Assembly: GCA_036924285.1 (NCBI GenBank)
Contig: JAYKYS010000005.1
Coordinates: 5,208,001 to 5,272,000 of the forward strand
Source of the DNA: Asterella californica
Lineage: Eukaryota > Streptophyta > Marchantiopsida > Marchantiales > Aytoniaceae
Direction of reading: 5' to 3'
Length of the DNA: 64,000 nt
Part shown: one piece after another, positions 30,674 through 61,196 of the stretch
Layout of the letters: every line of letters starts with the position of its first letter
Numbering within the stretch: position 1 is the stretch's first letter
The notes under the pieces: model-generated
Seen by the model: the letters and a program-made list of their open reading frames with translations, nothing else
Databases searched by the model: none
What the model was told of the DNA's origin: nothing
Program-made: the position numbers and the translations under genes

Positions 30674-30678
30674 CTCCT

Positions 30679-30761
30679 CTGTCGTGCGCATACACATCGC
30701 TACACAACATACATCGCTGTCAAAAGAACACCATACATACACATAACACATGGACGATGTC
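30679..30761. repeat. 83-bp direct repeat, copy 1
   Basis: Begins ctgtcgtgcgcatacacatc and is identical to 31049-31131 except for one base. The two copies bracket an LTR (30764-31047). Confidence 0.9.
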
Positions 30762-30763
30762 GA

Positions 30764-31047
30764 TGGATAACAAGGTATGTACTCACTCCACCTGCCAACA
30801 GACACTAGACAATCACTACAGTCGAGCCAAATCCACTCTGTGCTCGCAAAGAATCCAGATCTCACTCTCAAGACTACTCACCATAGCCAGGAGCTTGAAG
30901 GCTCAACTTGAAGAACTGAGGTCTCCAAGCCCCTACCTGCGAAGTATACCCTTTGTGGACACTCTCACCAACTTGCCCTAACGGCCTTATCGGGGTCCGC
31001 CACTTTGTACTCGGTCAACCTAGCCGAGTTACCAAACTGACGTGACA
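30764..31047 (-). repeat. 284-bp solo LTR of the copia family also seen at 40249-40530
   Basis: Shows TG...CA ends and about 95% identity to 40249-40530 by eye (roughly a dozen differences, mostly transitions, plus two single-base indels). No primer-binding site or polypurine tract adjoins it, so it is most simply a solo LTR inserted between the two 83-bp repeats. No clean 5-bp target duplication is evident next to the ends. Confidence 0.7.
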
Positions 31048-31048
31048 G

Positions 31049-31131
31049 CTGTCGTGCGCATACACATCGCTACACAACATACATCGCTGTCAAAGGAACA
31101 CCATACATACACATAACACATGGACGATGTC
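31049..31131. repeat. 83-bp direct repeat, copy 2
   Basis: Partner of 30679-30761. From its right edge to 31328 the DNA is the 3' untranslated part of the methyltransferase element, including a G-rich run on the minus strand at about 31159-31165. Confidence 0.9.
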
Positions 31132-31328
31132 ATACACATACACAAGTGTACCACAATCGCCCCCCTAACTGGCGGTTAGGTCCTTCTAACTCCAGATAGT
31201 TCCATATCTCAACTACGTGATATACACCTTCATGGGTGCAAGGATCAGGAGGCCGGGTGCTACATTGCTCCATCGTTAGTCGCCTGTCTGCAATCCATAC
31301 TACGCAAAGATCTAATCAGCTATTCCTG

Positions 31329-31424
31329 CTATATACATCGAGGACAAACCCACCGTCCAATAGGAATGACAGTGAGAGGTGGAGTCAAACATGACATGTC
31401 CCACAACATGCACCTCAAGCCTGC
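31329..31424 (-). pseudogene. PHD-finger remnant after integrase
   Basis: In the same frame beyond the TGA at 31425 the sequence reads AGLRCMLWDMSCLTPPLTVI and continues PIGRWVCPRCI to TAG 31331-31329. The C-L-x-P-P-L-x-x-I-P-x-G-x-W-x-C-P-x-C phrase is the C-terminal half of a classical C4HC3 PHD finger, and R-C-M-L-W is where the first C-x2-C should be (second Cys now Trp). The middle ligands, including the expected Cys pair and His, are missing, so an internal deletion is inferred. PHD fingers usually read histone H3 tails; here it would have sat at the integrase C-terminus. Confidence 0.65.
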
Positions 31425-32714
31425 TCATACAACTGCCAAGCTTGGGTCAACGGTACCATCGATGTTGGGAAGATGACATGGCGCGCAATTACGCACATGG
31501 TCCTTCCAAACAACACCATCAAGGCCCTCTAACATGAGTACTCCAGAAGGTAACACCTCACGCACTCGTAAAATAGTGCGTCCTGCGGTCACATCCAACG
31601 TCGTCGGTGCAGTCTGCTGCAGATAGATATAATCGTCAGGATGAAACCTGCGAATCGATGGCCGATAACCTCCTCCTCGGATAGTTGCATATCGCAACGT
31701 GTCTCTATGCTGAGCAATCGCTAGATTCTCAAAAGCCATGGGCATAACTCTCCGAAATGTCTCTACTCGTTGAGAACATGCTCTCACCCACATATCCGGG
31801 TCATCAAGGTTCAGCACCTCGGCAGAATCACGACGAATGGCCGAAGGTAGATCTGGATCTCGACCGTATAATAGAAAATACGGTGAGAAGGAAGCCAAAG
31901 ACGCTTGTCGGCTAAAACGGTAGCCCATAGCCAACCATGGTAACTGCACATCCCAAACCCCCAAGTGGCCCTTCTGCAAGCCATACTTACGCAATCCTCT
32001 CTTCACCGTCTGAACTACCCTCTCCGCCAAACCATCCACCTCGGGATGATCTCGAGATGTAGTTCGATGATCAATCAGCGCCTGATCACACAAGATCTGA
32101 AACTCACCAAGGAACTCTGTACCTTGGTCTGTCAGCACTTCAGCTGTTGCTCCAAAACGACTCAACACTCGATCTAAGAATGCATACGCTGTCCCTTCAC
32201 TCGTCTTGTCTGGTAATACCACCAACTCAATCCACTTGGAAAAGTGCTCCACCATCACCAACATATATCGATGGTGACGTACAGTTAACGGTAAGGGTCC
32301 CGCAAAATCCAAACTCCAACGGTAACCCAACCCCATAATCGATAAGGGGTGTAACTGTGGAGTAGGAGCATTAAACGATGCTCGTACTCGATCACAAACC
32401 ACACATCGTGCAACAAACTTTTGCACATCGACGTGCATACCACGCCACCAATATTGTCCTTGGAGTAAGCTATGCGTGCGCTTCACTCCAAAATGTCCCA
32501 ACTCCTCATGAGCATGTCGTACTAATTGTGCCATCTGGGATGGATGTGGCACTATCCGTACTCTCTCATCATCCCACACTCGAAGTACATGTCGTCCTTC
32601 TCGTCGAAATTTCTTCGCTCGTTGAAGGACACGATCTCGCTCCTTGGCACTTACTGTGTCTACCACCACGCCAGTACGTAGATACTCCATCACGGTCACA
32701 TTGTCATGGATATC
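31425..32714 (-). pseudogene. integrase of the methyltransferase element
   Basis: 424 codons in the pol frame. There is an N-terminal HHCC zinc site (HEELGHFGVKRTH, then CVVCDRV, with C99 and C102). The catalytic core has Asp131 in SLDFAG, Asp191 in TDQGTEF and Glu226 in DGLAERVV, the exact D-x35-E spacing of retroviral-type integrases. The C-terminal part has ILRVREVLPSGVLMLEG, then NCAPCHLPNIDG before TGA 31427-31425. This is the most intact domain of the copy. No chromodomain is present; the frame continues after the stop into a PHD-like tail. Confidence 0.9.
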
Positions 32715-33465
32715 TCACTGGTTTGGAACACCATCTCCACCCTCAAGATCTGGAGAGTCGTCATCTACTCTCTCACTTGAGAAAGATACGACTTGGCCCT
32801 CCATACTAGAGTTCATGGCCAACACACAAAGAAAGGCAGATGCATGCCACCTCGGCACTATCTCCTCATCAACCTCGTCATGCCATCGAGCCCCAGTCTG
32901 ATCCTGCTGACTCGTGCATGGGTTACGACTCAACCCATCAGCATCTAGGTTTGCATTTCCCGGTCTATGCACTAACCTGGAAGTCATACTCCTGTAAGAT
33001 CAGAGCCCATCGTGCAACCTTCCCTGTAAGCTTGTCGGACTCCATCAACCACTTGAGCGACTGGTGATAAGTGATGAGAGTAAAGGGGTTTCCAAACAGA
33101 TAACATCGGAAGTGTGCAACAGCCCACACTGCAGCTAAACACTCCCCCTCGTACGAACTGTACCTCGCCTCCGTCGAATTGTTGGAGCGATTGGCATACG
33201 CCACCACAAACTTCTTTTTCTCATCATCATGCTGAGTCAGCACTGCTCCAAGTCCCAACATACTCCAATCAATGTGTAGTTGGAAAGGACGTCTCCTAAC
33301 GGGTCTCCTCAAGATGGGAGCAGATGTCAACCTATCCTTGAGCTCCACGAAAGCTCGCTCTTGCTCATCTTCCCACTGCCACTCCTGGTCCACCTTCATC
33401 AGCTTGGTCAATGGCTTCGCAATTGCACTAAATCCTTTCACGTATCGACGATAAAAGTTCACCAA
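32715..33465 (-). pseudogene. RNase H of the methyltransferase element
   Basis: The thumb and RNase H region begins VNFYRRYVKGFSAIAKPLT and continues FQLHIDWSMLGLGAVLTQHD (catalytic-type D in LHIDWS), VVAYANRS, then YEGECLAAVWAVAHFRCYL and the end LILQEYDFQV. This is read in a shifted frame from 33465 to 32965. A second frameshift near 32980 restores the original pol frame, which gives LVHRPGNANLDADGLSRNP, the family's C-terminal RNase H and connection phrase, and runs to TGA 32717-32715. The two indels compensate each other. Confidence 0.85.
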
Positions 33466-34382
33466 ACTCGACTCACATCAGTGGGGCGTGGAATACGTGC
33501 AATGACCTCGACCTTTGTCTGTTGAACACCCAACCCACCTGGGTAGATGGTGTGACCCAGATACTCTACCAACTCCTGGAAGAACTTGCACTTCCCAGGG
33601 TGTAACTTCAACCCATGAGCTCTCAACCGCTCGAACACATCCCGTAAGTGTCTCTCGTGCTCCTCCACTGTAGCACTATAGACTAAGATGTCGTCAATAT
33701 AGCATCTGACAAAATCCAATCCTGCTAGGATCCTATCCATCACTCTTTGGAATTCAGCAGGGGCGTTCTTCAACCCAAATGGTAAGAACCGCCACTGATA
33801 CAAACAATCTTTGTCGTGAGAGTCAATCCCCCAAAATGCTGTCTTGGGTTTATCTTCCTCTCTCACCGGCAACTGATGATACCCTACTCGAAGATCCAAA
33901 GTACTGAAGACCTTCACATGCCCCACTGCATCAAAGATCTCCTCAGGTGTCGGCATGGCATACTTATCGGACTTCGTCTGCCGATTGATAGGACGGTAGT
34001 CTCCACACATACGCCTATCCGTGTAGTTGCCATACATATCTTTCTTTGCTGGCATAACTGTGGCAGATGCATACTCTCCATGCGACATCTCCACCAACCC
34101 AGCTTCCACCAAGTCTTGAGTCCTACTCTGGATCAAGGTTCTCTCCATGTCACTGTACCTGTAAGGACGTCGAAAGATTGGCGTGTCATTAGCCAAGTCG
34201 ATCCGTATACCCGGTCCCTTCAAGGTACCAAAATCCTTCATACTAAAGACAAAACAATTCCTGTAGCTCTTCAAGAATCTCTGAACTCTTCGTCTCTCCT
34301 CTCTTATAAACTTGGGTCCGATCTCCGGCTCCCAAGTATCCTCTGTCACCATGCTAGAGGTAGAAGACGAAGTCGTTGACTG
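33459..34382 (-). pseudogene. reverse transcriptase of the methyltransferase element
   Basis: Follows in frame after the TAG at 34383. The 297-codon frame has the Ty3/gypsy reverse-transcriptase series: FRRPYRYS, RRMCGDYRPINRQT, FSTLDLRVGYHQLPV (first catalytic Asp, residue 153), FLPFGLKNAPAEFQRVMD and CYIDDILVYS (residues 218-221 are YIDD, the catalytic pair), then EYLGHTI. The polymerase core is complete. The frame ends at TGA 33461-33459 because a small deletion removed roughly R-S-F-L-G-L and shifted the frame; the next residues, VNFYRRYVKGF, are read in the next frame. Confidence 0.9.
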
Positions 34383-34624
34383 CTATCTTGCAGCCTCTGG
34401 AGCAGTTTCCTTCTGCTCACCACCAACAACCTCCACCGCTACTGTGCGAAAAACTTCTGCAGTTCTAGCTGCAAGCTCCACACTATCTCCTATGACATCC
34501 CATGATGTCCAAGGATGACGAACTCCACGTGCCTCGCCCCCAGTCTTTGCCTCCACCAACTTGGTAGGCAAAGAGCTCAAGAGTGCTCGAGCAGTAACAC
34601 CCGTCGATCGCATCCGACGCTGCT

Positions 34625-35600
34625 CAGCCAATCCAAGGCTAACAATCCATGTCAAGCAGTTCAAGTCCATTGCTTGACCCAACACTTGACGACGTGAAGC
34701 CTCCGACACCGAAGCTACTGCCGTCGTATCCGTAGTGAAATCCATCGCTCGCTCTCTCTCATCGGCATTGAGTTCCACCAATTGCCGTAATTGAGCATCC
34801 CACACAAGCTCAGGTCCTCCATCTCTGTAAGCATGTGACGCTGAAAAGCTTACCAAAGTGGGTAACGTTATCATGGGCCGTCCCACTAGGTTCACCACTG
34901 CCATGGGTGACCTATCGACGACTCTCACTACTTGAGATCGTCGTCCTGCATCCAAGATGCTATCAACCGTGAGATGCGCTGGTCGTCTCACTCCATCGTG
35001 TGCGCGCTTAAGCACCTCTCTCGGTAACAAGTTCGTCTACCACAACCGTGGACGATGTGCACGAGATCCTACTCTCGCTGCATCCAACAACACTGCTGGT
35101 CCAACCCAAGACCGAACCTGGTGCACACTCGTCATCATATGTGCACGAGCATCACCCAACAAAGGAACATTCTCCAAGATGTACGCTGGAGAATCCATCT
35201 GATGCATCTGGAGATGTCGTAAGATTTGTAACATCTCCCAAAACATCCTAGATCGTGGGTCATGCAAACCCTGACCTCTCCCAGCACGCGTGTGACCTTG
35301 ACATGACCACCCCGCTATTACCAAGTGAATGGTGCCAACAAACGTGAGATCCTGCGCCCCCAGCAGCAAAATATCTGATGGCAATGCTTGTTGGTATCCC
35401 CTAACGGCTGATATAGACAACAACTCAGGATATCTCTGCACCAAACGTGCCACGTGACGCAATGAGACGCGTCTTGCGACCTCATCTCTCTCCACATACA
35501 AGTATCGCTGTACTTGTATGCCTGCCTGCAATACCGCAGCCAAACTTGTGCTGATCCCTCCAAATAGCTCCAGCACACACACACCCTCCTTTGGATACTG
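34625..35600 (-). pseudogene. C5-cytosine DNA methyltransferase domain (DNMT3/DRM-like motif style)
   Basis: Transfers a methyl group from S-adenosylmethionine to cytosine C5. Visible motifs in order: I, CVLELFGGISTSLAAVL (about 35582); II, YLYVERDEVARR; IV, IAGWSCQGHTRAGRGQG with catalytic Cys TGT at 35303-35301; VI, YILENVPLL (about 35183-35157); VIII, RAHRPRLW then, past the stop, TN; IX-like, TLVSFSASHAYRDG; an ADERERAMDF block; and X, VLGQAMDLNCLTWIV (about 34685-34641). Motif order is not permuted. The residue before the catalytic Cys is Ser instead of the usual Pro. TAG at 35037-35039 replaces the second Trp expected in motif VIII and splits the domain. The motif VIII and X wording is closest to DNMT3-like enzymes. 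It lies between protease and reverse transcriptase in the same frame, which argues for an element gene rather than a host insertion. Confidence 0.85.
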
Positions 35601-37166
35601 CCATGCAATGAGAGTCGTATCCAACGGTGTTAAGGTCACAGGATCAGTAACAAGAACACCCCGATGTTCCTCTACTGGCGATACAAAGGCTTCACTCCAA
35701 GCCTGCTGCACCAACCGATCAGCATACTGCTGCAACTCTTCATTCGAACTCCAGAGTGGAACATCTAAAGCAGATGGTACTAATGTAGACATGATAGACA
35801 TGTCCTTCACCTCCTCAAAAACCGGAGTATCCTCCGCATGGACATTGTCTTCTAACAACTCACCCGGCCAAGTTATGACCGAACTGAACCCTGCAACGGA
35901 TGCCATCGTCTCTGATGTACGCTCCGTTGTCCCAACTCTAGCACTGAACCGCACTGGTAAGCGGCTCACTCGTCCCTCACCGGACTGCCAACCTGGTCTG
36001 TAAGATGCTGTCTCCGTCCAATAGTCGATCACGAACCCCATAGGGTACAACACAGCACCTCCCACCAATACATCATAAGACTCTGCGGCTGTAACGATGG
36101 CCTTGGCCCTCACCATAGAGCCATCCGTGAGGTGATCTGACCGAACTCTCACTGTCAACATCTCACGTGTCATGTGTAGAGCCGTATCTCCTGATCCCCC
36201 TAGAGATGTCTGCAACTGGAATGGACATCTCTCCACCTCGGACTTCTTTAGACCCAAACTAATACATGCCGCCTTTCCCAACATCAACGGTTGGGCTCCA
36301 GAGTCTAACAAGACCTTCTGGGGTCGATACACTTTCCTTGAAGGTGCCACCAAACAGAAGATATCACTTTTGTTGTCCAACAACACCACACCTGGTGCCA
36401 AACCAGCACGGTCAATCGTCGGCCTAGCTGGTGACTCATTTAACCTAGCAGTCGCCGCTTGCCAAGTACCACTGGTAGCTGTCCTGATCCTCGACTCCAT
36501 GGACACGTCTACCGTCTCTCGCTGAACTACTTCAGCACTAGAGGTAACTACATCCTCTCTCTCACTGAGCATGGCCGCCAACTGGAACACTGGAGCCAAG
36601 TTGACTCCCAATGCCTTCATATCCGTGGCTGAGAATAGTGGGGCTCGCAAAACTGCTGTAGCCGCCCCCAACATCGGGTTCGACGTCGCATCCACAGACG
36701 TCAAGGGTGGACTCACATCACACCCACTCCTGGATGTTGATGCCTCCAACTCTACTGCACCATCGGTAGACCGTTTAGGAACCATAGATGTGGTCTTCAA
36801 CGCCTTCGATAACGTGAACGACTGAGGAAGCTTGGCCTGTCTACCAGCCTCCCAGCGTTGTGGATCCAACTCCACTGACTCACCTCGTGGCTCAGAGACA
36901 CGTACTCCACCTCTAATCAATGCCGCAGATGCCTCAATCTGCGCCACACCAGCCATGAAGTCGAAGTCACCTCCTTCTCCTCCATAAGACGTGGAAGCCT
37001 CTGTTCCACCTGATCTCCGCTGAGCCATAGCCATACTAGCTATCCTCTGCTCCAACTGCTCAATCCGAGCAGCCATACCTGCTTGTGACGTCGTAGCAGG
37101 CGGTGGACCAACTGGTCCTCTCCTAGGTGTTGGACCTCTACCTCCAGCTCGACCACCACGGCCTCC
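35601..37166 (-). pseudogene. aspartic protease region of the methyltransferase element
   Basis: First 490 or so codons of the 679-codon pol frame that starts at 37076, preceded in frame by a Gly/Arg/Pro-rich linker after the gag stop. The retropepsin active site reads VLLDSGAQPLML (residues 255-266; D258-S-G near 36305), with a later SYDVLVGGAVLYPMGFVIDY that fits the second conserved half. About 140 residues of unassigned linker (residues 355-495) then lead into the methyltransferase. The protease would cut the polyprotein, and probably free the methyltransferase, but cleavage sites cannot be read from the sequence. Confidence 0.7.
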
Positions 37167-38530
37167 CTAAGCTCCTCCGCCTCGTCCACGATCAACCTTC
37201 CCTTGCCGTAGCTCAGGATGAAGATCAAAACAACGGTCACTACTGTGACCTGGTCGCTCGCAATGCTCACACTGCCTAGGCACCGCTTGAGACGTCCCAG
37301 ATGTCTCATAACCACCTCTCTTTTGTGGACAATCTTTTTGCTGATGAGGACCATCACAAGTCCAACAAGGACCTGCTTGCTGCTGACTAGAGAAGGACGG
37401 CATGGGCTTCTGCCCACCAGATCCTCCAACACCTCCATGGGATCGCGAGTGTTCAGCACGATCCTTACCACCACCACCATCATGCTGTTGCGTAGCCTGT
37501 GATCCTCGAGAAGAGGAGGTCGCCCCATGTGATGCGTCCCTGCTGAACCCAGCAGTCACCACCCTCTCCTCTACCATGTTGAGCTCTATCCGCTCAGCCA
37601 AACTAAAGACAACCGCTAATGTCGGAGCGGTGTCTCTAAGGAGAGTGGCATCCCTGACTCTCCTACGCAGCTCCCGATCTAGTATCCCATACCAAAACTG
37701 GACTGCCTGTGCTTCTGTCACCCCTTGGATAACGCTGATCAACCGCCTCATGCTAGTAAAAGCCTCGCGTAGGCTCTCTCCAGTCTTCCGCTGGAACTCT
37801 TGCAGACTCTTCAATTTGTCGGTCCGCACACCATGATAATTCTTCCTCAAACAGTAGAAGAACTGAACCACAGGGTTAAACTCTGGTGGTATCTCGGTCG
37901 CACTACCACCTGCTCCACTACTAGTGGACGCACCACTGGTAGTAGAGACTCCGCCACCCGTGGATGTACCACTACTACTGGCACTTGACCTCGTAGGTGC
38001 TACGCCTCTCAAAACTGCACCAGTAGTGATAGAAACGTAGTTGGGAGACCAATGTTGTCTCCAGAACTCAATCTCAACACCGTAGTCTCGTCTGAACTCG
38101 TGGTAATCGTCCATCGACGGTCCCTCCAAGTGCTGAAACAAACCTTTCCACGTCATGAAAGGTGTGAACAACTGTGGGTTCTGCATCTACTGCAGATCGC
38201 ACCAACTGTCGAACTCCTGGATGAAGTCATCCAGCTCAATGATACCCACCGTACTCGAGTAATGTCGAGGTCCCTTCGTGGCCCCATAGATCTCGTCCAT
38301 GTCCCACAACAACGATGTGGTGACACTAGACTCACCACCAGAAAACGCGCTGTCTGCGCCTGACTCGTCCTCTAGAACAACCAACGGCAATGGTGTAAGT
38401 CGTCGGTACCTCACCCCACTCCGTGTATACCCACTGTCCGAGAAGTCTCCACCAGAACCTCCCGAGAACTTCGTGGTGATAGAACCTCACGGACATACTC
38501 TCTAACCAGAATGTCGAAATCCTCGTCACC
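37167..38530 (-). pseudogene. Gag of the methyltransferase element
   Basis: The N-terminal part (about 38530-38414) is in another frame. The main frame begins near 38414, is broken by TAG at 38187, and continues for 339 codons to TAG 37167. It holds a retrotransposon-gag-like helical region (FNPVVQFFYCLRKNYHGV, then WYGILDRELRRRVRD), a Ser/Gly/Thr-rich spacer, and two zinc knuckles, CWTCDGPHQQKDC (C-x2-C-x3-H-x4-C) and CEHCERPGHSSDRC (C-x2-C-x4-H-x4-C), at residues 274-286 and 306-319. Gag should coat the element RNA. The TAG at 37167 separates it from pol in the same frame, which could be a mutation or a readthrough point. Confidence 0.75.
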
Positions 38531-39190
38531 ACCGTAACTACAACTTGCCTATCTCCGCTCTTACTGAGCTCACCTATCTCCTACTAGGACGGTCAAGGTA
38601 AGGGCAACCTGTACCTGCCATCACCACAAGCAGCCTCTCACGGTTTGTTGGTCGTCACTCCAACTGCACCGTGAGAGAAACAAAGATAGTCTGACTGGTC
38701 ATCACTCCAGCCTCACTACCGACAGCACACTAGAGTGAATTCACTCTGGAAATCAAGCGCCAACACAAGCAAACGCGGCGCACAAATAGGAAATAGAATA
38801 TGGAGGGGTTCCAACCACAAGAAGTCCAAACGATAACCCTCCACACTCAAACATTCACATAAAGAGAAACCCAGCCCCACCCGGACTGACGCGTCTTCTT
38901 CGGTGACCATATGCACAATATATGATCACCGACTGTTATAACTTGTATCTAAGATCACTAACTAGATGTCCATATCTCTAGTAGCTCCAAAAATATCAAC
39001 GTGATAGCTCTACTAGCTCATCCAAGACAACTGCTACCAACTGTCTTCATACGCGTCTTTTCGGTATAGGCAAACACTACCACAACAGCAGCTTCCCCCT
39101 AGTACTCTGGGGTCGCCCTACCACTCCTCTAGGAACGTGCGAGCAGGTCTCCTACTATCTTAAACCAGCCCCTAAGTACTTGCACGCATC
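38531..39190. other. 5' leader or LTR area of the methyltransferase element
   Basis: Lies upstream of gag on the minus strand and has no frame of note. It should contain the primer-binding site and 5' LTR, but no copy of the 30354-30673 LTR and no clear tRNA primer match can be seen. The 5' LTR was either lost or is too diverged to recognise. Confidence 0.4.
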
Positions 39191-39310
39191 CCTGTAAGAC
39201 ACCAAGAGCTATTGGTCTAGTGGTACAGCCAAAGTTGAGACTACAGAGTTAAGCGTCCAAGTCCAGAAATAGTGTTGTGATGGGTGACCTACTGGTTTTA
39301 CATCCCACAC
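39191..39310 (+). repeat. 5S rRNA-derived sequence in a retroelement setting
   Basis: agagttaagcg (39245-39255), then 23 bases, then gatgggtgacctactgg (39279-39295), matches the plant 5S rRNA gene A-box to C-box region with the same 23-base spacing as a true 5S gene. Weaker similarity continues upstream (caccaagagctattgg against the ACCAGCACTAATG part). The flanks are not 5S spacer, and the middle has diverged. This resembles 5S-derived Pol III promoters in Cassandra-type TRIM LTRs or in 5S-derived SINEs. It lies on the strand opposite to the neighbouring gypsy genes. Confidence 0.65.
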
Positions 39311-40248
39311 AACTGAAACTTGGATACCTCTCTCACGCACGCCAGCAAGCTGGCCTGCGGCGGGCGCGGACTCAGGCTCAGGCTCCGCCTCCGCACTCCG
39401 CTCTCACGCCTCCGCACTCACGCACCTCTGCTCCTCGAAGCTTTTAAACGCCTCCTAACACACACTCGACACTCCCGCTCACTCTCCGCTCCGCTCCGCT
39501 TGGAGAAGAGTACCCGGGCCAAACACCATAAAGAAGGACGAGTACGACGAGAAAACACCCGAAACAGCAACTCAGGGTCAAAATTGCACCAAATTGTCGA
39601 AATCAGTCAATTTGGAACTCGCAGACGGAATTTACGTCAGATTTTGACCAACCCGCGACCTTCTTCGGCTTGTAACTTCGTCGATCCTTCACCAAATCGA
39701 ACGATTTTGGTTGCCTTGGAATCGTCTTCCCGGCGCACCTACTGCACTTCTCAGATCCAAAAATTATCGACCCAATCCAACCTGACACTCCTCGACGCAC
39801 TTCTGCTGACCTAAAACCCGTCACAAAACCCGTCACCAGAAATTTTGACTTCTCATAACTCAAAAACGGCTCGACCAAACTTCGTGAATCTTCCTGCACT
39901 ACGATCGTCTTCCCAGCGCGCTTCCAACGAGCCCACATCGACTTGACATTGTCGACTGTTTCGTCCGCACGCCCAAATACGCACTTCAGCCCGAAAATGA
40001 TCACTTCAACACATTCCGTGAAATTTCAGCAGCGCTTCCGCACTACCTCACCGCCAAATCGACTGCGAACAAGTTCAGACGACACCCATACTCACAGTGA
40101 TCGATCACAACACCCAAAACGAACTACTCCACGCACGTGCGCACCCGCAAATCGAAGATATCAACGATCTGTCAACTCCGGAGATACCACCGGCAGCAAT
40201 CTACGACCTGAAATCCTAAACCAGACCTCTCAATCCGAGTTCTTCAAG
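39311..40248. other. GC-richer LTR/leader-like sequence
   Basis: Frames at 39320-39814 (+) and 39603-40004 (-) have no family; the sequence is made of diverged internal repeats (tcgtcttcc[ca]gcgc at about 39721 and 39909, and tgaatctt/cgatcctt-type units), as in plant LTRs. The right edge meets the copia LTR at 40249. Confidence 0.35.
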
Positions 40249-40530
40249 TGATAACAAGGTATGTACTCACTCCACCTGCCAACAAGCACTAGACAATCAC
40301 TACAGTCGAGCCAAATCCACTCTGTGCTCGCAGAGAATTCAGATCTCACTCTCAAGACTACTCACCATAGCCAGGAGCTTGAAGGCTCAACTTGAAGAAC
40401 TGAGGTCTCCAAGCCCTACCTGCGAAGTATACTCTTTGTGGACACTCTCACCAACTTGCCCTAACGGCTTTACCGGGGTCTGCCACTTTGCACTCGATCA
40501 ACCTAGCCGAGTTACCAAACTGACGTGACA
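40249..40530 (-). repeat. 282-bp 3' LTR of the copia element at 40.5-42.1 kb
   Basis: TGTCACGTCAG...TTATCA on the minus strand. It directly follows the copia RNase H C-terminus and a purine run (GAAGAGG) at 40531-40537, as expected of a 3' LTR. An 8-bp direct repeat (CTTGAAGA) lies on both sides, two bases away on the upstream side. Its family copy is 30764-31047. Confidence 0.65.
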
Positions 40531-42110
40531 CCTCTTCAAGCTCGACTCAACATCCTGTACTCCTAGACAATGTCTGAAAGCATCAAACTTATCTCTAGGC
40601 ATTGCCTTAATGAATATATCAGCAACCTGATCTCCTGCGCTCACATAACTGAGCTCAATCTCTCTTGCAAGGACCTTCTCTCTATGAAATGATAATGCAC
40701 CTCAAGGTGCTTCGTCCTAGCATGAAAAACAAGATTACTAGCTAACTTCATGCTACTAATGTTGTCTATATATACAACAACAGGATATGTACACTCCACA
40801 CAAATATCAGATAGCAGACATCGAAGTCAAATTGATCCGCATGTTGTGTTCGTTGCTCCTCGGTACTCTGCTTTTGTGGATGACAACCCATCTTACAGCA
40901 GCGCTTCCAAGTCCAAAAGCGTAACTTGACATAGATCTCTTGTCGACGCTTCTTGTCCAATCAACATATGTGTAGTCATGTAACAACAGTGGTCCATAGT
41001 ATCGATAGTGAAGTCCGTACTGCATCGAGAACTTCACGTAGCGGAGGATCCGCTTGACAACCTCCAAATGTGATCTTCGTGGTGACTGCATGAACTGACT
41101 GATCAGATCGACATCATAGCTCAAGTCTGGTCTGGTGATCGTCAAGTAGATAAGACTCCCAAGCATCTGTCTGTACATGCGTGGATCATCAAGTAACTCA
41201 CCATCCTCTGCTCCTAGCTTTACCCCTTGCTCTAGTGACGTAGCAATGGGTTTGCAATCAAGCATACCAAATCTCTCAAGCATACTGAGAGCACAATGTC
41301 GCTGTACAAGCCAAACATCCTTCTCATCTCTAATGAACTTTACAGCAAAGAAATACTTGAGTTCTCCTAAGTCCATCATCTCGAACTGATCCTTGATCTG
41401 GGAAATAAGCTCCTCATAGTTATCAGTAATGATCAAGTCATCAACATAGATGGTGATCACAACAATCCGGTCTCGTATTCTCAATGAATACAAGGTAGAG
41501 TCTGAATTACAAAGGTGGAAACCAAGAGACTGCAAGTAGGATTTGATCTTTGCATACCATGCTCTTGATGTCTGTTTCAGACCATAGAGGGCCTTCTGTA
41601 ACTTACACACGAGAATGGCACTTAGGATTCTCATAACCTGGAGGTTGCTGCATGACCTTGAAGACCCACCTACAACCAATCGCTTTCTTATCCTCAAGTA
41701 AGTCCCTCCCAAGTCTGTTGGTGATGAAGCGCAACAAGTTAAGCTTCCATAGCACTTACCCATTGGGCTTTGTGCATCGCCTCCTCAAGTTCAGTTATGG
41801 CCAATGTTCTTCAGGAATAAGAACTCGGTTCTTATTCCTGAAGAACATTGGCCATATATGCATGATGCGCAACAAGAAAACCTTCATGCATATACCTACT
41901 CACTGGATGTTTTGTCCATTCAGATCCGCGAGAGATAATCGGTGCACTAGTCACCTCTCCTTGCATCTGATCTGACATAGACGCCAAGGTATGAGACAAA
42001 ATATCCAATGGATATGAAAGATCCACATATCTGGACGAGTCAAACATACGTTGCAATAGCACGCGCTCATCTTGTATAGAAACTACACTAGTTCCACTAG
42101 GCTATGTTAC
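40531..42110 (-). pseudogene. Ty1/copia pol fragment (reverse transcriptase and RNase H)
   Basis: Copia-order motifs: SEWTKHPVSRY and HHAYMANVLQE near 41990-41840, a decayed KKAIGCRWVFKV, QQPPGYE, then in the main frame LQKALYGLKQTSRAWYAKI, VVITIYVDDLIIT (YVDD catalytic pair), MDLGELKYFFAVKF, MYRQMLGSLIYLTITRPDLS and FMQSPRRSHLEVVKRILRY. RNase H follows in shifted frames and ends with HARTKHLEVHYHF and AFRHCLGVQDVESSLKR beside the LTR. The stretch between WVFKV and QQPPGYE, which should carry YKARLVAKGF and the following motifs, is deleted, and gag, protease and integrase are absent. The element is dead. Confidence 0.85.
41797..41855. repeat. perfect 28-bp inverted repeat inside copia pol
   Basis: atggccaatgttcttcagga... 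(41797-41824) is exactly complementary to 41828-41855, with a tcg loop. One arm is part of the copia coding sequence (ANVLQE region); the other is an inverted duplicate of it. Confidence 0.9.
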
Positions 42111-51034: not shown

Positions 51035-52646
51035 TCATCTTATACCCGTAGCCTCAAGAGCGTCCGTCCATTCTCCTTCGTCCTCAGCAAGTTGCTCGTC
51101 CTTGATGATGTCAATGTAGACATCATGGACTTCCCTTGTAGTAGCAACCAAGACCTCCCGTGAAGTGAATCCAACCTTCAGATCTTGAATGCGCTCCTCC
51201 CAACCTCCCTTCACATCCATCGTCGTCATATCCGCATCTGGTTGTTGTTTGTCTGCAACCAGATCACCCACGTCCGCTATCTGCACCTCAACCATCTCCT
51301 CCGGTTGTGAAGGATCGCCCTCCATTGCCTGTTCAGGAAGAATAGTTTCTTGTTGAATCCTATCCTCCTGAGCTAGCCTCCTTGAAGAAGTATCTTGTTG
51401 GTCTTTCTTCTCGCACTGCATCGTGGATGCAGTATCCAACCTGAGCTCGTTTAGATCCTCGTGCTCATCCAAACCATCTCTATGGAGATCATGCTCAATC
51501 TCCTCCACCCTAGCACCATAATTTGTAGCTTCGGTAGCTACAACTGCATGTGTCGCAAGGCAATCATCCACAAACTTCTTCATCCCTCCTTTACCAACGT
51601 TGGCTTGAAGGAGAGTACCCGTACTTGTGAATGCAACCTTTCCATCTTCCCAAGAAATAACCTCACGTTGCAAAGACTCTGCAAAGTCGATGCAATCGTC
51701 CCGTTGATGGTCAGTACCATCACACCACATACACTGATGTACCCAAGATGGTTTGGGTACATCAGTCGATGATCCCTTATTCTCCAACCTAGTAATCTTA
51801 GCTTGCAGATCTTGCATATTTTGCTGTAGGTCCTCGATGGTTGGATCCTTCTTCTCTACAACCGCAACTGGAAGTTGAACCTCAGATATTGTCTGAACTG
51901 GTGTGGTAGTCAACGCTGCAGGTGTCAACCTTGTAACTCTTTCCCTTGTCTGTCTCCGGACAAGAAGCTCAACCGCTTCATGCACAACCTCCCAATTTCT
52001 TGTTAACCCTTCTTCTTCCTCCTCATCCTCCAGAAGTAGCTCCAACTGTTCTTGCCATGGTTCATCCGCAGCTTGAAGAAATAGTTCTGTCTTGTAGCTC
52101 TCCAAGGTTAGCTTGTCCACCCGAAGTAGTTGAGAGAATTGTCTCTCGAACTCCTTTAACAGCTCTGCAGGCTGTAAACCCTTGCTGGATCCGTTGACCC
52201 ATCCCAAAAAAGATTTCTTGGTTACTCGATCTGAGTTTCCCAAGAAATACTTCTCCATCAGTGCATGTGAAAATGTATCCCAGTTCCTCCCAAAACGCTT
52301 TGACCTTCACATGCTCCCTTATCTCAGGCACCGCAGCGAGTTCGAATGTCTCGATCATCTCCTTCTCCGATACTTGATCCAATTCCATCTCCATCTTGTA
52401 ACATCTCAAGTACTCAGAGATGTCTCTCCCACCAAAAAGATCAAACTTGTCGATCACCCTTCCAAGCGCTTTCTTCCCCAAAGCCTCCTTTTGTTGCTTC
52501 CCTTGCTCTTGTCGCATAAACAAAGTGAAGGCTTGAAACAATCGTGCAGTTGCTGCATCCAACTGCACCCCTGGTATCCCCTCTGATCTATCCATTCCGT
52601 CCAAAGTCATAGCTCGTCCTATCCTCTCATCCTCCCATGATCCCAA
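51035..52646 (-). pseudogene. gag of the nested non-autonomous element
   Basis: Two frames joined by one frameshift near 52275. The first (from 52646) has KFDLFGGRDISEYLRCYKME and FELAAVPEIREHVK. The second (407 codons to 51035) has EKYFLGNSDRVTKKSFLGWV, a zinc knuckle CMWCDGTDHQRDDC (C-x2-C-x4-H-x4-C), GKGGMKKFVDD, then a long acidic tail ending EDEGEWTDALEATGIR. The element at 56.4-63.4 kb has the same Gag type. Only one lesion was found, in line with the young LTRs; it may still make the C-terminal part. Confidence 0.75.
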
Positions 52647-52799
52647 CCGTCTAGAAATCCATCATCCCAGGTCCACAACATCCTCCCGAACAACCAAACC
52701 CATCTTCATCCTCGTTCATGATTGCTGATCTCTTCTGTCCAGTTCTGACACACAAATATCTCCACCCCGGACCTTCACGTCGAGTTCACCACCATATCG

Positions 52800-55319: not shown

Positions 55320-56443
55320 GTAGAGATTGTGAGAAGACTCTCTACCCTGAAGTTTAGAATCAATGTCATTCAAGATGAGAAAAGTAGATTCCTAGATATA
55401 TTTTAGAAATATATCCATGTGTTTGCTTTCAGTTGTCGACATAAACAGAGAAAGGTCAATCGTACAATGGCAATGATGGTCAAGGAAGAGATAGACAAGT
55501 TGAAGAAGGCAAGTTTCATCTACGAGGTGGAGAACTGAGGATGAGTTTCACCCATTGTGATTGTCAAGAAGAAGAATGATAAGTTGCGAGTGTGCATAGA
55601 CTATAAGAACATGAATGCAATTACCAAGAAGGATTATTATCCTCTGCCATTTATAGATGAGATTTTGGAAAAAGTCGTTGACTGGTACATCTTTGGTGAT
55701 GGTTATAGTGGATATAACCATATCAAGATAGCACAAGAATACCAGCAGTTGACTACTTTCACTACTCCTTGGGGAACATTTGTATTTCGGGTGATGTCAT
55801 TCAGACTGTGTAATGCTCCGGTCGCGTTTCAGAGGTTCATGAACAAGGTGTTTGAACCATTCATAGGGAAGTTTGTCCGTTATTTCATTGATGATTTTTG
55901 CGTGTACGGAAGAAAGGAGGACCACTTTGATCATATGATCAAAGTTTTGCAACGCATGGAGCAAGCCAACGCTTCTCTAAATCCAAAGAAGTGCATCTTT
56001 GGTTGCAAAGAAGGTCTACTGTTGGGACACATCATTTCCAAGAATGAGATGGCGGTAGATCTTGAGAAGGTGAAGAAGATTGTGGATCTTTCATTTCCGA
56101 TCAACTTGACAAAGTTGAGGGAGTTTCTTGGCATGGTTGGATATTATCGTAGGTTTGTCTTGTCCTTCTCGAACAAAACAATAGCTTTGACGATGTACAT
56201 GAAGAAAGAAGTTGATTTTTGACTTGATAGTGCATGATCAGAAGGCAAAGTAAGCATTTGAGGAGCTGAAAAAGACATTGGTGACAACTCCTATACTTGC
56301 TAAACTTGAGTGGAGTAAAGCATTTATGCTGTATACGGATGCCTCCAATGTAGCAATGAGATGTACATTAAGTCAGTTAGATGGAGATGGACATGATCAT
56401 CCTATAACTTATGCTAGTAGCCAGATGGTTCTTGTTGTCGAGG
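55320..56443 (+). pseudogene. reverse transcriptase and RNase H start of the Athila/Tat-like gypsy element
   Basis: The main 221-codon frame (55557-56222) has VKKKNDKLRVCIDYKNMNAI, YYPLPFIDEIL, YSGYNHIKIA, TTFTTPWGTFVFRVM, LCNAPVAFQRFM, YFIDDFCVYG (catalytic FIDD), LGHIIS and EFLGMVGYYRRFV. The phrase TTFTTPWGTFxxRVMxFxLCNAPxxFQR is characteristic of Athila/Tat. RNase H begins FMLYTDASNVAM and HPITYASSQM and is cut at 56443 by the next element's LTR. Stops at 55406, 55536 and 56221 show decay. Confidence 0.85.
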
Positions 56444-58137: not shown

Positions 58138-59733
58138 CTACAACTCACGCTTCACTTGAGAATAGTTACGTTGTCTATCTGTTAAGATCCGAGCTCCATA
58201 CCTTGAAACAAATCGCACACCTTCTGTATCTTCTTGACCAACCGCCCATCCAATCGCTTTTGGACTCGTATCAACAGTCAATACCACAGGTCTCTCGCTC
58301 TCGTAGTTAAGCCTCCTTAGTACAAGTGGAGACTTCAGAATCTCCTTCAGTTGCTCCATTGTCTCCTGATGTTCTTGCCGCCAAGTAAACCTCCTCCCCT
58401 TTCTCAGAAGTGCATAAAGAGGCTCGGCAATGTGTGCATAATGAGAAATACTCACACGAAAGAACACACAAGCTCCCAAGAAACGTCGAACCTCAGTGAT
58501 GTTAGTACAGTCAGCTATTCTTGCTATAGCATCTACCTTCTTTGGGTTCGAACGCCTTCCAAAAGTACCACACAGATGACCCACCACCACAATCTCTGAC
58601 ATTCCAAAGCGAGATTTGGTACCTGACAGAGTTAGGTGTACCTCTTCCAAACGCATCAGAATCTTTTCTACATCTCGAATGTGGTCTGCAACGAACTTTC
58701 TACATCCATCCGTAGCTTCGTCTTTGTCTTCCATCGGACATCCTTTCATGAGAATATCATCCAGAAACGGGATAGTGACCTCAGGTACAAACTCTCGTAA
58801 TACCTTATGCATCGCATTCTGCATATGGGCTATTGAGTTTGTCGCACCTTGAGGAAGAGTACACATCCGCATCAGTCTCAAAGATGTACGCATGGTAGTC
58901 AAGTCTCTACTCTCCAAAGCAAGCTGAAACTGATCATAACCTGAAAACAGATCTCCAATAGAATAGATTGACCTTCCAGCAAACGCCTCAGCTACTTCAT
59001 CAACCACAGGTCCTGTCTAGACGTTTCGAATCGTGATGTTGTTGGCAAGCTGCAAGTCTTGGATGAAGCGTAGAGCTCTTGTCTTCTTAGGTACTGTGAA
59101 CCATCGGCTAGAGTACGGAGCCATAGATGGTTCAAGAATACCCATCTGTATCCTTTCCTTCAACAACTCAATGACCTTCGTTAGTAAGGCACGAAGGAAT
59201 GAAATCGGCTTCAAGTCCCAAGGTACGTGAGGAACAGTGAAGATAACCATCGGAGCTATCACACTAGGATCCACACAACCAATCTCTCCAGCTGAGAAAG
59301 AAAATGCATTACCATGACTAACTATCACCTTCTCGAAAGTTTGCTTTTCCACTTCAGTCAAGAAGCCACCTCCTCCTATCTGAAGCTGCTCGAGTGTCTG
59401 CTGAGTAAACTTGTGTCCTACTTGTGTAGGATTTCTAAGCACAGGCTCAGCGGTCATCAACTCCATCTGCTGTCGTGAGTCAACGGATAACTGGGTCGCC
59501 ACAAGCTTCACCTTCCTTGCTACAGCTTTATACTTGGCGTGTACTTCCGCTTCTTGATGAGAGCCACACCAACAGACTGCATCCTTCCATCCATTCTCCA
59601 GTCTCGGATGAGGACGATACTGCAAGTCCGAGACAATCTCCTCATAGACTTCACGAGAATAGATGGGGAGGACCACCCTACCTCCCATTTGCTCCATCAA
59701 CTTATCTACATCATCGAGCCAACGAACAAAAGA
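58138..59733 (-). pseudogene. divergent reverse transcriptase and RNase H start
   Basis: One frame broken by TAG at 59017 and 59734. Upstream half: VIFTVPHVPWDLKPI, GILEPSMAPYSSRWFTVPKK, ALRFIQDLQLANNITI. Downstream half: YSIGDLFSGYDQFQLALESR, CTLPQGATNSIAHMQNAM, TIPFLDDILMKG (FLDD catalytic motif), VVVGHLCGTFGRRSNPKKVD, EVRRFLGACVFFRV, then VVLTVDTSPKAIGWAVGQ starting RNase H. This is a Ty3-like polymerase well removed from the classical plant lineages in the LPxG block (CTLPQGATNS) and in FLDD. Confidence 0.8.
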
Positions 59734-60035: not shown

Positions 60036-61000
60036 CTACAAGAGTGGTTTCATAAAACCCTTACTCCTACAGATAGGAGAATCTCTCAAGGTCTGTCGGT
60101 TTTGTTTGTGATTCGTACGAACAGTCAGAAACTGCACAGAACGTCTATCATATGAACTACGGATCCTAGCATAATGAGATCCATCATCCATCACCTTGAT
60201 CTCCATTCGAAGTGCAGTGATATAAGGCTGATCAAGAATCACAAGATATGAAGCAGAAGATTGCACGAAGAAGTGCTGATCTACATCCACATCACTTATC
60301 TTCACCTTCACGTTAGGACAAGCGCCGTATAGTTCACCTTTCTGGTTGTTTGTAGCACGTAACACCCAACCATGGTTCAGCTCGATAGACCACTGACCTC
60401 TCTCATACACTTCCCGTGACATGATGTTGATCTCAGATCCGTGATCAACCAAGGCATCAACAGATTCAGGTAAACTCCCAAGGCGAACTCGTGTAGCAGT
60501 CGTAGCACGAGTCCAATGTCTTTTTCTGAAGTCACTATCACTAGCTGGACTCTCTTCACCAACTTCCTCATCGTCGAACTCAATAGTGTTGGTATCAGCA
60601 ACTAGCGATTCTTGCTGGTAGCCTTGGTCATCAACTTCCTGAAAATGCACTTTTCCAAACTCCGCATCATTCACAGAAGCTCCTACCACATCTATCATTT
60701 GACTTTCTACTTGTTCAGACATCATCTGTCTCTTGCGCTTGATGATGTCGATGATCAATTCGTGAAACTCCCTCTTTGCAATACCAAGAACTTCTCGGAG
60801 AGAAAACTCGATTCGTGCATCCAGTATCCTCTGCTCCAAGATGCTCTTCAGATTAGTAGAAGTTTCAATATCAGCCGTCAACTTGTAGGCCGGTCCCTTC
60901 CCCTTCTCTTGGGTAGTAAACCTCCTTCCATCCACAGTTGGCTCCTGCTGGGATCTCTGCACGTCCTCCATCGGAACTGATGCATGTGGAAGAGCTTGAG
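60036..61000 (-). pseudogene. protease region of the integrase-less element
   Basis: Frame from 60971 includes ATTATRVRLGSLPESVDALV followed by DHGSEINIMSREVY. DHG stands where D[ST]G is usual. Later ACPNVKVKISDVDVDQHFFV and YLVILDQPYITALRMEIKVM fit the rest of a retropepsin-like fold. A frameshift near 60055 leads to the linker frame (60000-59734) before the reverse transcriptase. Confidence 0.65.
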
Positions 61001-61196
61001 AAGTAGAGGAGATGTCCCCTGGAGGAGCTGCTCGTCTCCTTGTGACCCTCCGTCTATCCCCAGTCTCCTAAGGAACTCCAGTATCAACTTCAGAGGCTTC
61101 TCGTCGCCTCTTTTCCTCCATAAAAGCATATTGTCAATGAACGTGTTTATCTACATCCAAGAATGCTCTGATAGAAGCAGCATCTACAGGATCTCT

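What the first reader, a model, noticed from the sequence alone, without database searches (positions are those of the whole stretch)
34625..35600. Ty3/gypsy element that carries a C5-cytosine DNA methyltransferase inside pol
Motifs I, II, IV, VI, VIII, IX-like and X of a C5 methyltransferase are read in the pol frame between the protease and the reverse transcriptase. Gag, RT, RNase H and integrase lie on the same strand and mostly in the same frame. A retrotransposon that encodes a DNA methylation writer could methylate its own cDNA or its insertion sites. Retroelement-borne DNMTs are, as I recall, reported in dinoflagellates and charophyte algae. The protease-MTase-RT order and a plant-like genomic setting next to a TatB-like gene would be worth establishing as a lineage.
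Basis: partly seen in the sequence, partly recalled or inferred. Interest (0 to 1): 0.93.

Follow-up and report, generated by a model that had tools for sequence, protein, structure and literature searches.

The report
Jumping gene carrying DNA methylation writer
This stretch of what is likely a liverwort genome holds a decayed copy of a common jumping gene that encodes a DNA-methyltransferase domain next to its copying machinery, with which it likely methylates its own DNA copies before they insert; relatives in other liverworts, a peat moss and green algae suggest that this partnership is ancient.

The parts
30680..40530 (-). whole element, ends TGTC...GACA, flanked by the 4-bp duplication CCTC (30676-30679 and 40531-40534 on the + strand)
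40249..40530 (-). A1, left terminal repeat (no B part here)
   Evidence: 95.8% identical to A2 over 285 columns
37167..38486 (-). Gag remnant in two open pieces (38486-38187, 38186-37167) with two CCHC-type knuckles (37367-37329, 37271-37230)
   Evidence: knuckles read from the sequence, no Pfam hit
35888..36398 (-). aspartic protease region, DSGAQ at 36305-36291
   Evidence: motif; extent set by hand from the intact copy; some related proteins carry PF13650
34608..35603 (-). C5-cytosine methyltransferase domain, DNMT3-type fold; broken here by a stop at 35039-35037 and Pro-to-Ser at 35306-35304
   Evidence: fold from intact copy
34377..34385 (-). UAG CAG UCA: stop between the methyltransferase ORF and the RT ORF, in a type I readthrough context
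   Evidence: UAG-CAG-UCA in 16 of 16 intact copies, UAG in 20 of 20 further copies
33459..34382 (-). reverse transcriptase (CYIDDIL 33704-33684)
   Evidence: PF00078 E 3.3e-33
32965..33477 (-). RNase H, in another frame in this copy
   Evidence: PF17917 E 2.2e-33
31425..32714 (-). integrase, zinc-binding and DDE core
   Evidence: PF17921 E 3.2e-17, PF00665 E 2.1e-12
31332..31427 (-). remnant of the PHD finger, internally deleted in this copy
   Evidence: intact form PF00628 E 6.8e-11 in L028
31157..31165 (-). purine-rich tract just before B1, possible plus-strand primer
   Evidence: read from the sequence
31050..31156 (-). B1, internal copy of the right terminal repeat
31048..31049 (-). GC between B1 and A2, making the palindrome GACAGCTGTC
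   Evidence: same in L043
30766..31047 (-). A2, copy of A1
30680..30762 (-). B2, right terminal repeat (its first ~25 bases are missing in this copy)

Best explanation
This is a decayed copy of a high-copy Ty3/gypsy-type retrotransposon family that encodes a methyltransferase domain with a predicted DNMT3-type fold between protease and reverse transcriptase and a PHD finger after the integrase, and the enzyme likely methylates the element's own cDNA before insertion. Shown by sequence: the domain order; the intact catalytic residues; the split terminal repeats; the UAG in a type I readthrough context; constraint on the domain; retention of methyltransferase sequence in the 67 copies examined; relatives in bryophytes, a charophyte and chlorophytes. 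Inferred: because the methyltransferase ends the ORF before the leaky UAG, most of it would be made with Gag, in excess over RT, and be packaged in the particle. There it would meet the new cDNA, so that the daughter copy arrives methylated, like resident DNA. The PHD finger resembles readers of unmodified histone H3 (recalled specificity) and would tether the integrase to chromatin lacking H3K4 methylation. Also inferred: the methyltransferase was captured once and later moved from before RT to between RNase H and integrase in the lineage found in chlorophytes.
Against: No activity, packaging, readthrough or histone binding was measured. The Klebsormidium domain gave no methylation in yeast, which its authors call inconclusive because DNMT3B failed too (PMC5890265, section 10). 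In the tree the retroelement domains do not nest in DNMT3: host DNMT3, DRM and viral-contig enzymes fall together on the other side. The excess of silent private changes in the domain is modest (26 silent, 24 replacement; unconstrained C>T/G>A would give about 2.15 replacement per silent), and the decayed window copy shows no higher ratio there (11 silent, 7 replacement, 1 stop). One relative with visible protease and no methyltransferase match (P0206), and probably P0236, show that the domain can be lost. Two homologues are filed under bacterial MAGs (P0050, P0215), which I take for misbinned contigs without testing it.
Confidence: 0.5

Rival explanations
1. The methyltransferase acts after integration: delivered with integrase and PHD finger, it methylates the insertion site or host chromatin, damping both the new copy and its neighbours.
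For: A DNMT3-type domain and a histone-reader-type finger in one element recall DNMT3 with its ADD domain (recalled). In the second arrangement the domain sits next to the integrase.
Against: In the family studied here the domain ends the Gag-side ORF and is separated from integrase by the UAG, which favours abundance in the particle over tethering to integrase.
Confidence: 0.2
2. The domain works against the host or competitors: it dilutes host methylation factors or modifies rival DNA, as proposed for antiviral defence by retroelement methylases.
For: Hypothesis in PMC6338049 (passages).
Against: No restriction-like partner family was found by Pfam in the ORFs scanned; nothing here tests it.
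Confidence: 0.1
3. The substrate is RNA (genomic RNA or tRNA), as for DNMT2.
For: The particle holds RNA; de Mendoza et al. raise RNA for the LINE-type element (section 11).
Against: DNMT3A leads the solved-sequence lists and DNMT2-type tRNA enzymes are far down; the best folds are DNMT3.
Confidence: 0.07
4. Neutral passenger: a captured host gene carried without use.
For: A relative lives without it: P0206. Newest private changes show only modest constraint.
Against: dN/dS 0.18, catalytic residues kept across deep divergence, present in 67 of 67 RT-ranked copies examined (searches corrected, 83).
Confidence: 0.05
5. Two captures instead of one: the before-RT and after-RNase-H methyltransferases were taken separately from related, unsampled host enzymes.
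For: Host green-algal methyltransferases such as ChloroDNMT (PMC12344493, passages) were not in my tree.
Against: All 34 rows form one clade apart from DNMT3, DRM and viral-contig enzymes, and the RT and methyltransferase trees are compatible.
Confidence: 0.2

Closest known systems
KnitGypsy-Dnmt3 of Klebsormidium nitens (de Mendoza et al. 2018, PMC5890265; abstract, passages and sections 9-11 read)
   Same: Gypsy-type Pol with an unrearranged Dnmt3-type domain, key residues kept, low Ka/Ks, terminal repeats arranged as in DIRS elements.
   Different: The paper's main text has no mention of PHD, Marchantia, Sphagnum, Closterium or readthrough. It treats the capture as specific to the K. nitens lineage and reports fewer copies than in Symbiodinium. 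No K. nitens protein was named in my listed hits, so sequence kinship is untested.
SymbioDIRS-Dnmt3 and SymbioLINE-Dnmt of dinoflagellates (same paper)
   Same: Retroelement-borne C5 methyltransferase; the SymbioDIRS domains methylate CG in yeast.
   Different: Other retroelement classes, reported as independent captures.
DNMT3A/DNMT3B
   Same: Fold and linear motif order of the catalytic domain.
   Different: 21-26% identity over the aligned fold; no ADD or PWWP domain found by Pfam in the element; not grouped with DNMT3A in my tree.
DIRS/PAT-like retrotransposons (repeat plan recalled)
   Same: A1-body-B1-A2-B2 split direct repeats.
   Different: Here a DDE integrase and a 4-bp target duplication; no tyrosine recombinase family found in the ORFs scanned.
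Chromodomain-bearing gypsy elements (chromoviruses; PMC2864245 seen in a search listing only, rest recalled)
   Same: A chromatin-reader-type module after the integrase.
   Different: PHD finger instead of chromodomain, plus a methyltransferase.

Membership tests
KnitGypsy-Dnmt3-like elements | RT, RNase H, DDE integrase of gypsy type | tested here: met
KnitGypsy-Dnmt3-like elements | unrearranged Dnmt3-type domain inside the polyprotein | tested here: met
   motifs I to X in linear order; fold
KnitGypsy-Dnmt3-like elements | DIRS-like structure of terminal repeats | tested here: met
   in the two copies whose ends were read (window, L028)
KnitGypsy-Dnmt3-like elements | purifying selection on the domain (Ka/Ks below 0.2) | tested here: met
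   0.18 in 16 intact copies; newest private changes show modest constraint only
KnitGypsy-Dnmt3-like elements | groups with the K. nitens sequences in a tree | not testable with these tools
   no K. nitens protein named among the listed hits
Ty3/gypsy LTR retrotransposons | order protease-RT-RNase H-integrase | tested here: met
Ty3/gypsy LTR retrotransposons | ordinary long terminal repeats at both ends | tested here: not met
   left end A only, right end B-GC-A-B; hence 'gypsy-type' only
DIRS (tyrosine recombinase) retrotransposons | tyrosine recombinase | tested here: not met
   no such family in the ORFs scanned from window and intact copies; DDE integrase instead
DNMT3 family | DNMT3 catalytic fold, motifs I, IV, VI, VIII, X, no circular permutation | tested here: met
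DNMT3 family | branches with DNMT3 in a tree | tested here: inconclusive
   separate clade; few host DNMT3 rows, DNMT3A row incomplete
DNMT3 family | ADD/PWWP targeting domains | tested here: not met
   Pfam scan of intact ORFs finds none
Type I stop-codon readthrough | UAG followed by CARYYA | tested here: met
   UAG-CAG-UCA in 16 of 16 intact copies
Type I stop-codon readthrough | measured readthrough | not testable with these tools
   no translation data

The most novel reading that the evidence does not exclude
A single gypsy-type lineage captured a DNMT3-like methyltransferase before chlorophytes and streptophytes parted and has kept writer plus PHD reader ever since. The domain then moved once inside Pol, so that its position (before RT in streptophytes, between RNase H and integrase in chlorophytes) marks the deepest split of green plants. 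In the bryophyte branch a leaky UAG turned it into a Gag-level component of the particle.
Probability: 0.4. Interest if true: 0.88.

Novelty: new variant of a known kind. Interest (0 to 1): 0.72.

Why it matters
DNA methylation is the usual weapon against transposons, so an element that keeps its own writer under selection asks what it gains. In the papers I saw, cytosine-methylase retroelements are described for one charophyte and for dinoflagellates (PMC5890265); a 2019 review names green algae and charophytes in general among hosts of adenine- or cytosine-methylase retroelements and states that such transposons are absent from land plants such as tracheophytes (PMC6338049, passages). Finding an abundant family with a fresh-looking insertion in a likely liverwort, with relatives in Marchantia polymorpha, brings the question into a genetically tractable model. 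Writer, reader-type finger and leaky stop also give three separately testable modules.

Tried and rejected
One-off insertion: rejected, because relatives and genome copies share the arrangement. Recent capture from a virus or bacterium: an IMG/VR scan gave 57 loci (best segments 23-48% identical), but the 27 of them used in the tree fall with DNMT3/DRM and not in the retroelement clade. DRM origin: the domain is not permuted. RNA structure after the UAG: z from -1.5 to -2.7 in three copies, too weak to claim. Rfam at gathering thresholds found nothing in the window or in two copies. Strand-biased cDNA editing: window-specific G>A exceeds C>T (65 to 35), but the element strand is G-rich, so I do not claim it. 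A clear tRNA primer site was not seen by eye; no primer search was run. In the fold search no DNMT1, CMT or DRM chain is among the 50 shown; that does not exclude them. Literature searches on retroelement DNMTs and on PHD or split repeats in gypsy showed no paper, by title and abstract start, on bryophyte cases or on a PHD-bearing methyltransferase gypsy. They cover only open-licence PMC papers; only 20 of 57 and only 20 of 363 papers were listed.

Full report
OBSERVATION. The window lies in a 517-Mb assembly of 773 contigs. The minus-strand ORFs between 38486 and 31425 carry Gag-like knuckles, protease, a C5 methyltransferase, RT, RNase H and integrase. Pfam DNA_methylase is hit at E 1.6e-5.

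THIS COPY IS DEAD. It has a stop at 35039-35037 inside the domain, SC in place of the catalytic PC, a stop that cuts Gag from protease, RNase H out of frame with RT, and a PHD finger with an internal deletion. Against 16 intact copies it has 130 private differences in 3,801 compared ORF1 sites (sites where at least 15 of the 16 agree), 100 of them C>T or G>A, in all three cytosine contexts (CG 19 of 332, CHG 28 of 417, CHH 53 of 1,334). That is what one expects of a methylated, decaying copy, but the same bias is seen in private changes of intact copies (170 of 240).

THE FAMILY IS ALIVE, OR RECENTLY WAS. PF00145 gave 123 scored matches from 1,250 candidates, at least two of them host genes (L001, DNMT3-like; L002, DRM-like; my reading). 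A relative's methyltransferase domain gave 119 scored from 3,545 candidates, each nearly full length. These counts are lower bounds. I fetched 20 copies chosen for long open frames; 16 have an open first ORF of 1,366-1,381 codons. In L028 the two A repeats are identical over 294 bases.

GENE ORDER IN INTACT COPIES. ORF1: Gag-protease-methyltransferase, 1,370 codons in L022. Then UAG, then ORF2 in the same frame: RT-RNase H-integrase-PHD finger, 1,041 codons in L028. Gag and protease rest on motifs read in the sequence; Pfam names only the methyltransferase in ORF1. The stop is UAG-CAG-UCA in 16 of 16 intact copies, and UAG stands in 20 of 20 further copies. It fits the type I readthrough signal UAG-CARYYA used by tobamoviruses (PMC5382211, passages). 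The copies are close kin, so this is one conserved signal, not 36 independent ones. Readthrough is inferred.

TERMINI. The ends are not ordinary LTRs. The left end has repeat A alone; the right end has B1, two bases GC, A2, B2. The element starts TGTC and ends GACA, and the B1-A2 joint is the palindrome GACAGCTGTC. The 4-bp duplications are perfect: CCTC in the window, TCGG in L028. Window copy and L028 differ by about 21% in A yet share this plan; only these two copies had their ends read. It is the split direct repeat of PAT/DIRS elements (recalled), here with a DDE integrase. De Mendoza et al. [quoted passage not shown] 4 legend). I read B1-GC-A2 as an internal template from which both ends are rebuilt during reverse transcription; this is inference.

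SELECTION. Pairwise dN/dS in intact copies is 0.18 for the methyltransferase, 0.20 protease, 0.25 gag, 0.06 RT, 0.09 integrase, 0.10 PHD, 0.54 for the linker before the methyltransferase and 1.67 for the ORF1 tail (16 copies for ORF1, 10 for RT/integrase, 7 for PHD). The control is weaker: private changes in the domain are 26 silent and 24 replacement, where unconstrained C>T/G>A would give about 2.15 replacement per silent change, and the window copy shows 11 silent, 7 replacement and one stop there (over the whole ORF1: 26 silent, 52 replacement, 3 stops; intact copies 110 and 130). So constraint is clear over the family's history but modest in the newest changes.

RETENTION. Of 68 copies ranked by RT-RNase H alone, 47 have a listed methyltransferase match just upstream: 43 at exactly 244 bp from the list, 4 from the list (corrected by one false entry of mine). 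Of the other 21 I fetched 20: 19 have the domain's end directly upstream and one (L116) keeps only its two ends. One was not examined. None of the 67 joins protease to RT.

RELATIVES. Searching the protein collection with the methyltransferase region gave 57 proteins: Marchantia polymorpha (63-77% identity in the rows covering 71% or more of the query), Sphagnum fallax (52%), Closterium sp. NIES-53 (30%) and unnamed, mostly metagenomic proteins. A second search from one of those gave 113, among them Monoraphidium neglectum and Cymbomonas tetramitiformis, both Chlorophyta, and one filed under a bacterial MAG (P0050). An integrase-PHD search gave 248, of which 120 were listed, among them Riccia sorocarpa, Calypogeia fissa, two Volvox species and another bacterial-MAG entry (P0215). 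The host itself has full-length plastid-type rbcL. Liverwort affinity rests on recall of rbcL/accD and on the element's closest relatives. Nine of the contigs whose length I saw exceed 26 Mb, which would fit n = 9, again recalled.

TWO ARRANGEMENTS. Of 262 proteins from the three searches, 183 hold a methyltransferase match. In 45 it lies after protease or before RT; in 105 after RT/RNase H; in 33 it directly precedes integrase with no RT in the piece. The 18 named streptophyte proteins with the domain (16 Marchantia, Sphagnum, Closterium) are all of the first kind; the two named chlorophytes with a full domain are of the second, and a Volvox piece has a weak match before integrase. A PHD match follows in 202 of 221 proteins with integrase, though one of the three searches used integrase plus PHD as bait. 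One protein with visible protease, P0206, has no methyltransferase match; P0236 probably none.

TREES. 34 retroelement methyltransferases form one clade (100/99*) against 27 viral-contig enzymes, DNMT3A, host DNMT3 and host DRM. Inside it, 20 rows of the second arrangement (two of them pieces that begin at the domain) plus P0057 and P0147 form a group (98/88*); the other 12 rows, all first arrangement, are weakly held (84/46). In the RT-RNase H tree of 59 rows the two arrangements part at 100/100*, with P0057 and P0147 on the first-arrangement side and P0206/P0236 nested in the second; the branch that sets the remaining first-arrangement rows apart has 91/85. As unrooted trees these are compatible. 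With DNMT3 and viral enzymes as outgroup, the position before RT is ancestral and one move explains the rest. Limits: rows were thinned to 59 of 136; the collection was sampled through these very domains; host methyltransferases of green algae are missing; most hosts are unnamed.

PHD FINGER. PF00628 E 6.8e-11 in L028; best solved relatives are PHD fingers of MLL3, CHD4, DPF2 (ubi-d4) and KDM5B. From recall, several of these bind H3 unmethylated at K4, as does the ADD domain of DNMT3. If so, the element unites writer and reader as DNMT3 does, by other parts. Not tested.

HOW IT LIKELY WORKS. Ordinary termination at UAG would yield Gag-protease-methyltransferase in bulk; leak yields the rest. 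The enzyme would then ride in the particle and methylate cDNA before integration, and the PHD-bearing integrase would place it in chromatin without H3K4 methylation. The daughter then looks resident from the start. De Mendoza et al. proposed self-methylation of cDNA; here gene order and the leaky stop give it a concrete route.

KNOWN OR NEW. The kind is known from Klebsormidium and dinoflagellates (PMC5890265; abstract, sections 9-11 and passages read). PMC12344493 (2025, passages) says only that some DNMT3 members sit in retrotransposons, citing that paper. PMC6338049 (2019, passages) lists green algae and charophytes among hosts of adenine- or cytosine-methylase Ty3/Gypsy and DIRS elements, without saying which carry which, and states absence from land plants such as tracheophytes; so a chlorophyte range may not be wholly new. 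PHD finger, leaky UAG, second arrangement and bryophyte range were not found in print in the searches (listings only, partly capped), nor by term in the main text of PMC5890265 (the second arrangement was not a search term).

Noticed in passing
window 40807-41784 (-): Copia-type RT fragment (PF07727, E 5.8e-23) just outside the element's left end; the element sits among other retroelement remains.
   Followed up: no
window 55545-56222 (+), 58138-59733 (-), 60036-61067 (-), 51035-52661 (-): Further RT- and Gag/protease-like ORFs of other gypsy-type elements, judged by eye from the translations.
   Followed up: no
methyltransferase domains of 159 sequences: The residue before the catalytic Cys is Pro in 82, Glu in 69, Ser in 4 and Asp in 3 of 159, although the Cys itself is nearly invariant; unusual for C5 methyltransferases (recalled).
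   Followed up: partly
L022 ORF1 residues 1297-1370: The tail before the UAG has few silent but many replacement differences (3 against 17 variable columns in the last 60; dN/dS 1.67), as if the RNA rather than the protein were constrained.
   Followed up: partly
L042/L043 against window 30680-40530: A repeats differ by about 21% between the two copies while B differs by about 3%, so the two repeat parts seem to evolve at different speeds.
   Followed up: no
L044-L100 (IMG/VR): Viral-contig C5 methyltransferases of DNMT3-like type fall with eukaryotic DNMT3/DRM rather than with the retroelement clade (24 of the 27 used, 98/90*), a hint on DNMT3 origins.
   Followed up: no
L001 (G000:C1:40144011-40147331): Host DNMT3-like gene, at least two exons; its own branch in the tree, far from the retroelement domain.
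   Followed up: partly
body just inside A1, window 40248 downward, and L042: No obvious tRNA primer site by eye, and the first bases of the body differ between window copy and L028; priming is unexplained.
   Followed up: no
P0050, P0215: Two homologues are filed under bacterial MAGs (Minisyncoccia, Spirochaetia); misbinned eukaryotic contigs are the likely reason.
   Followed up: no
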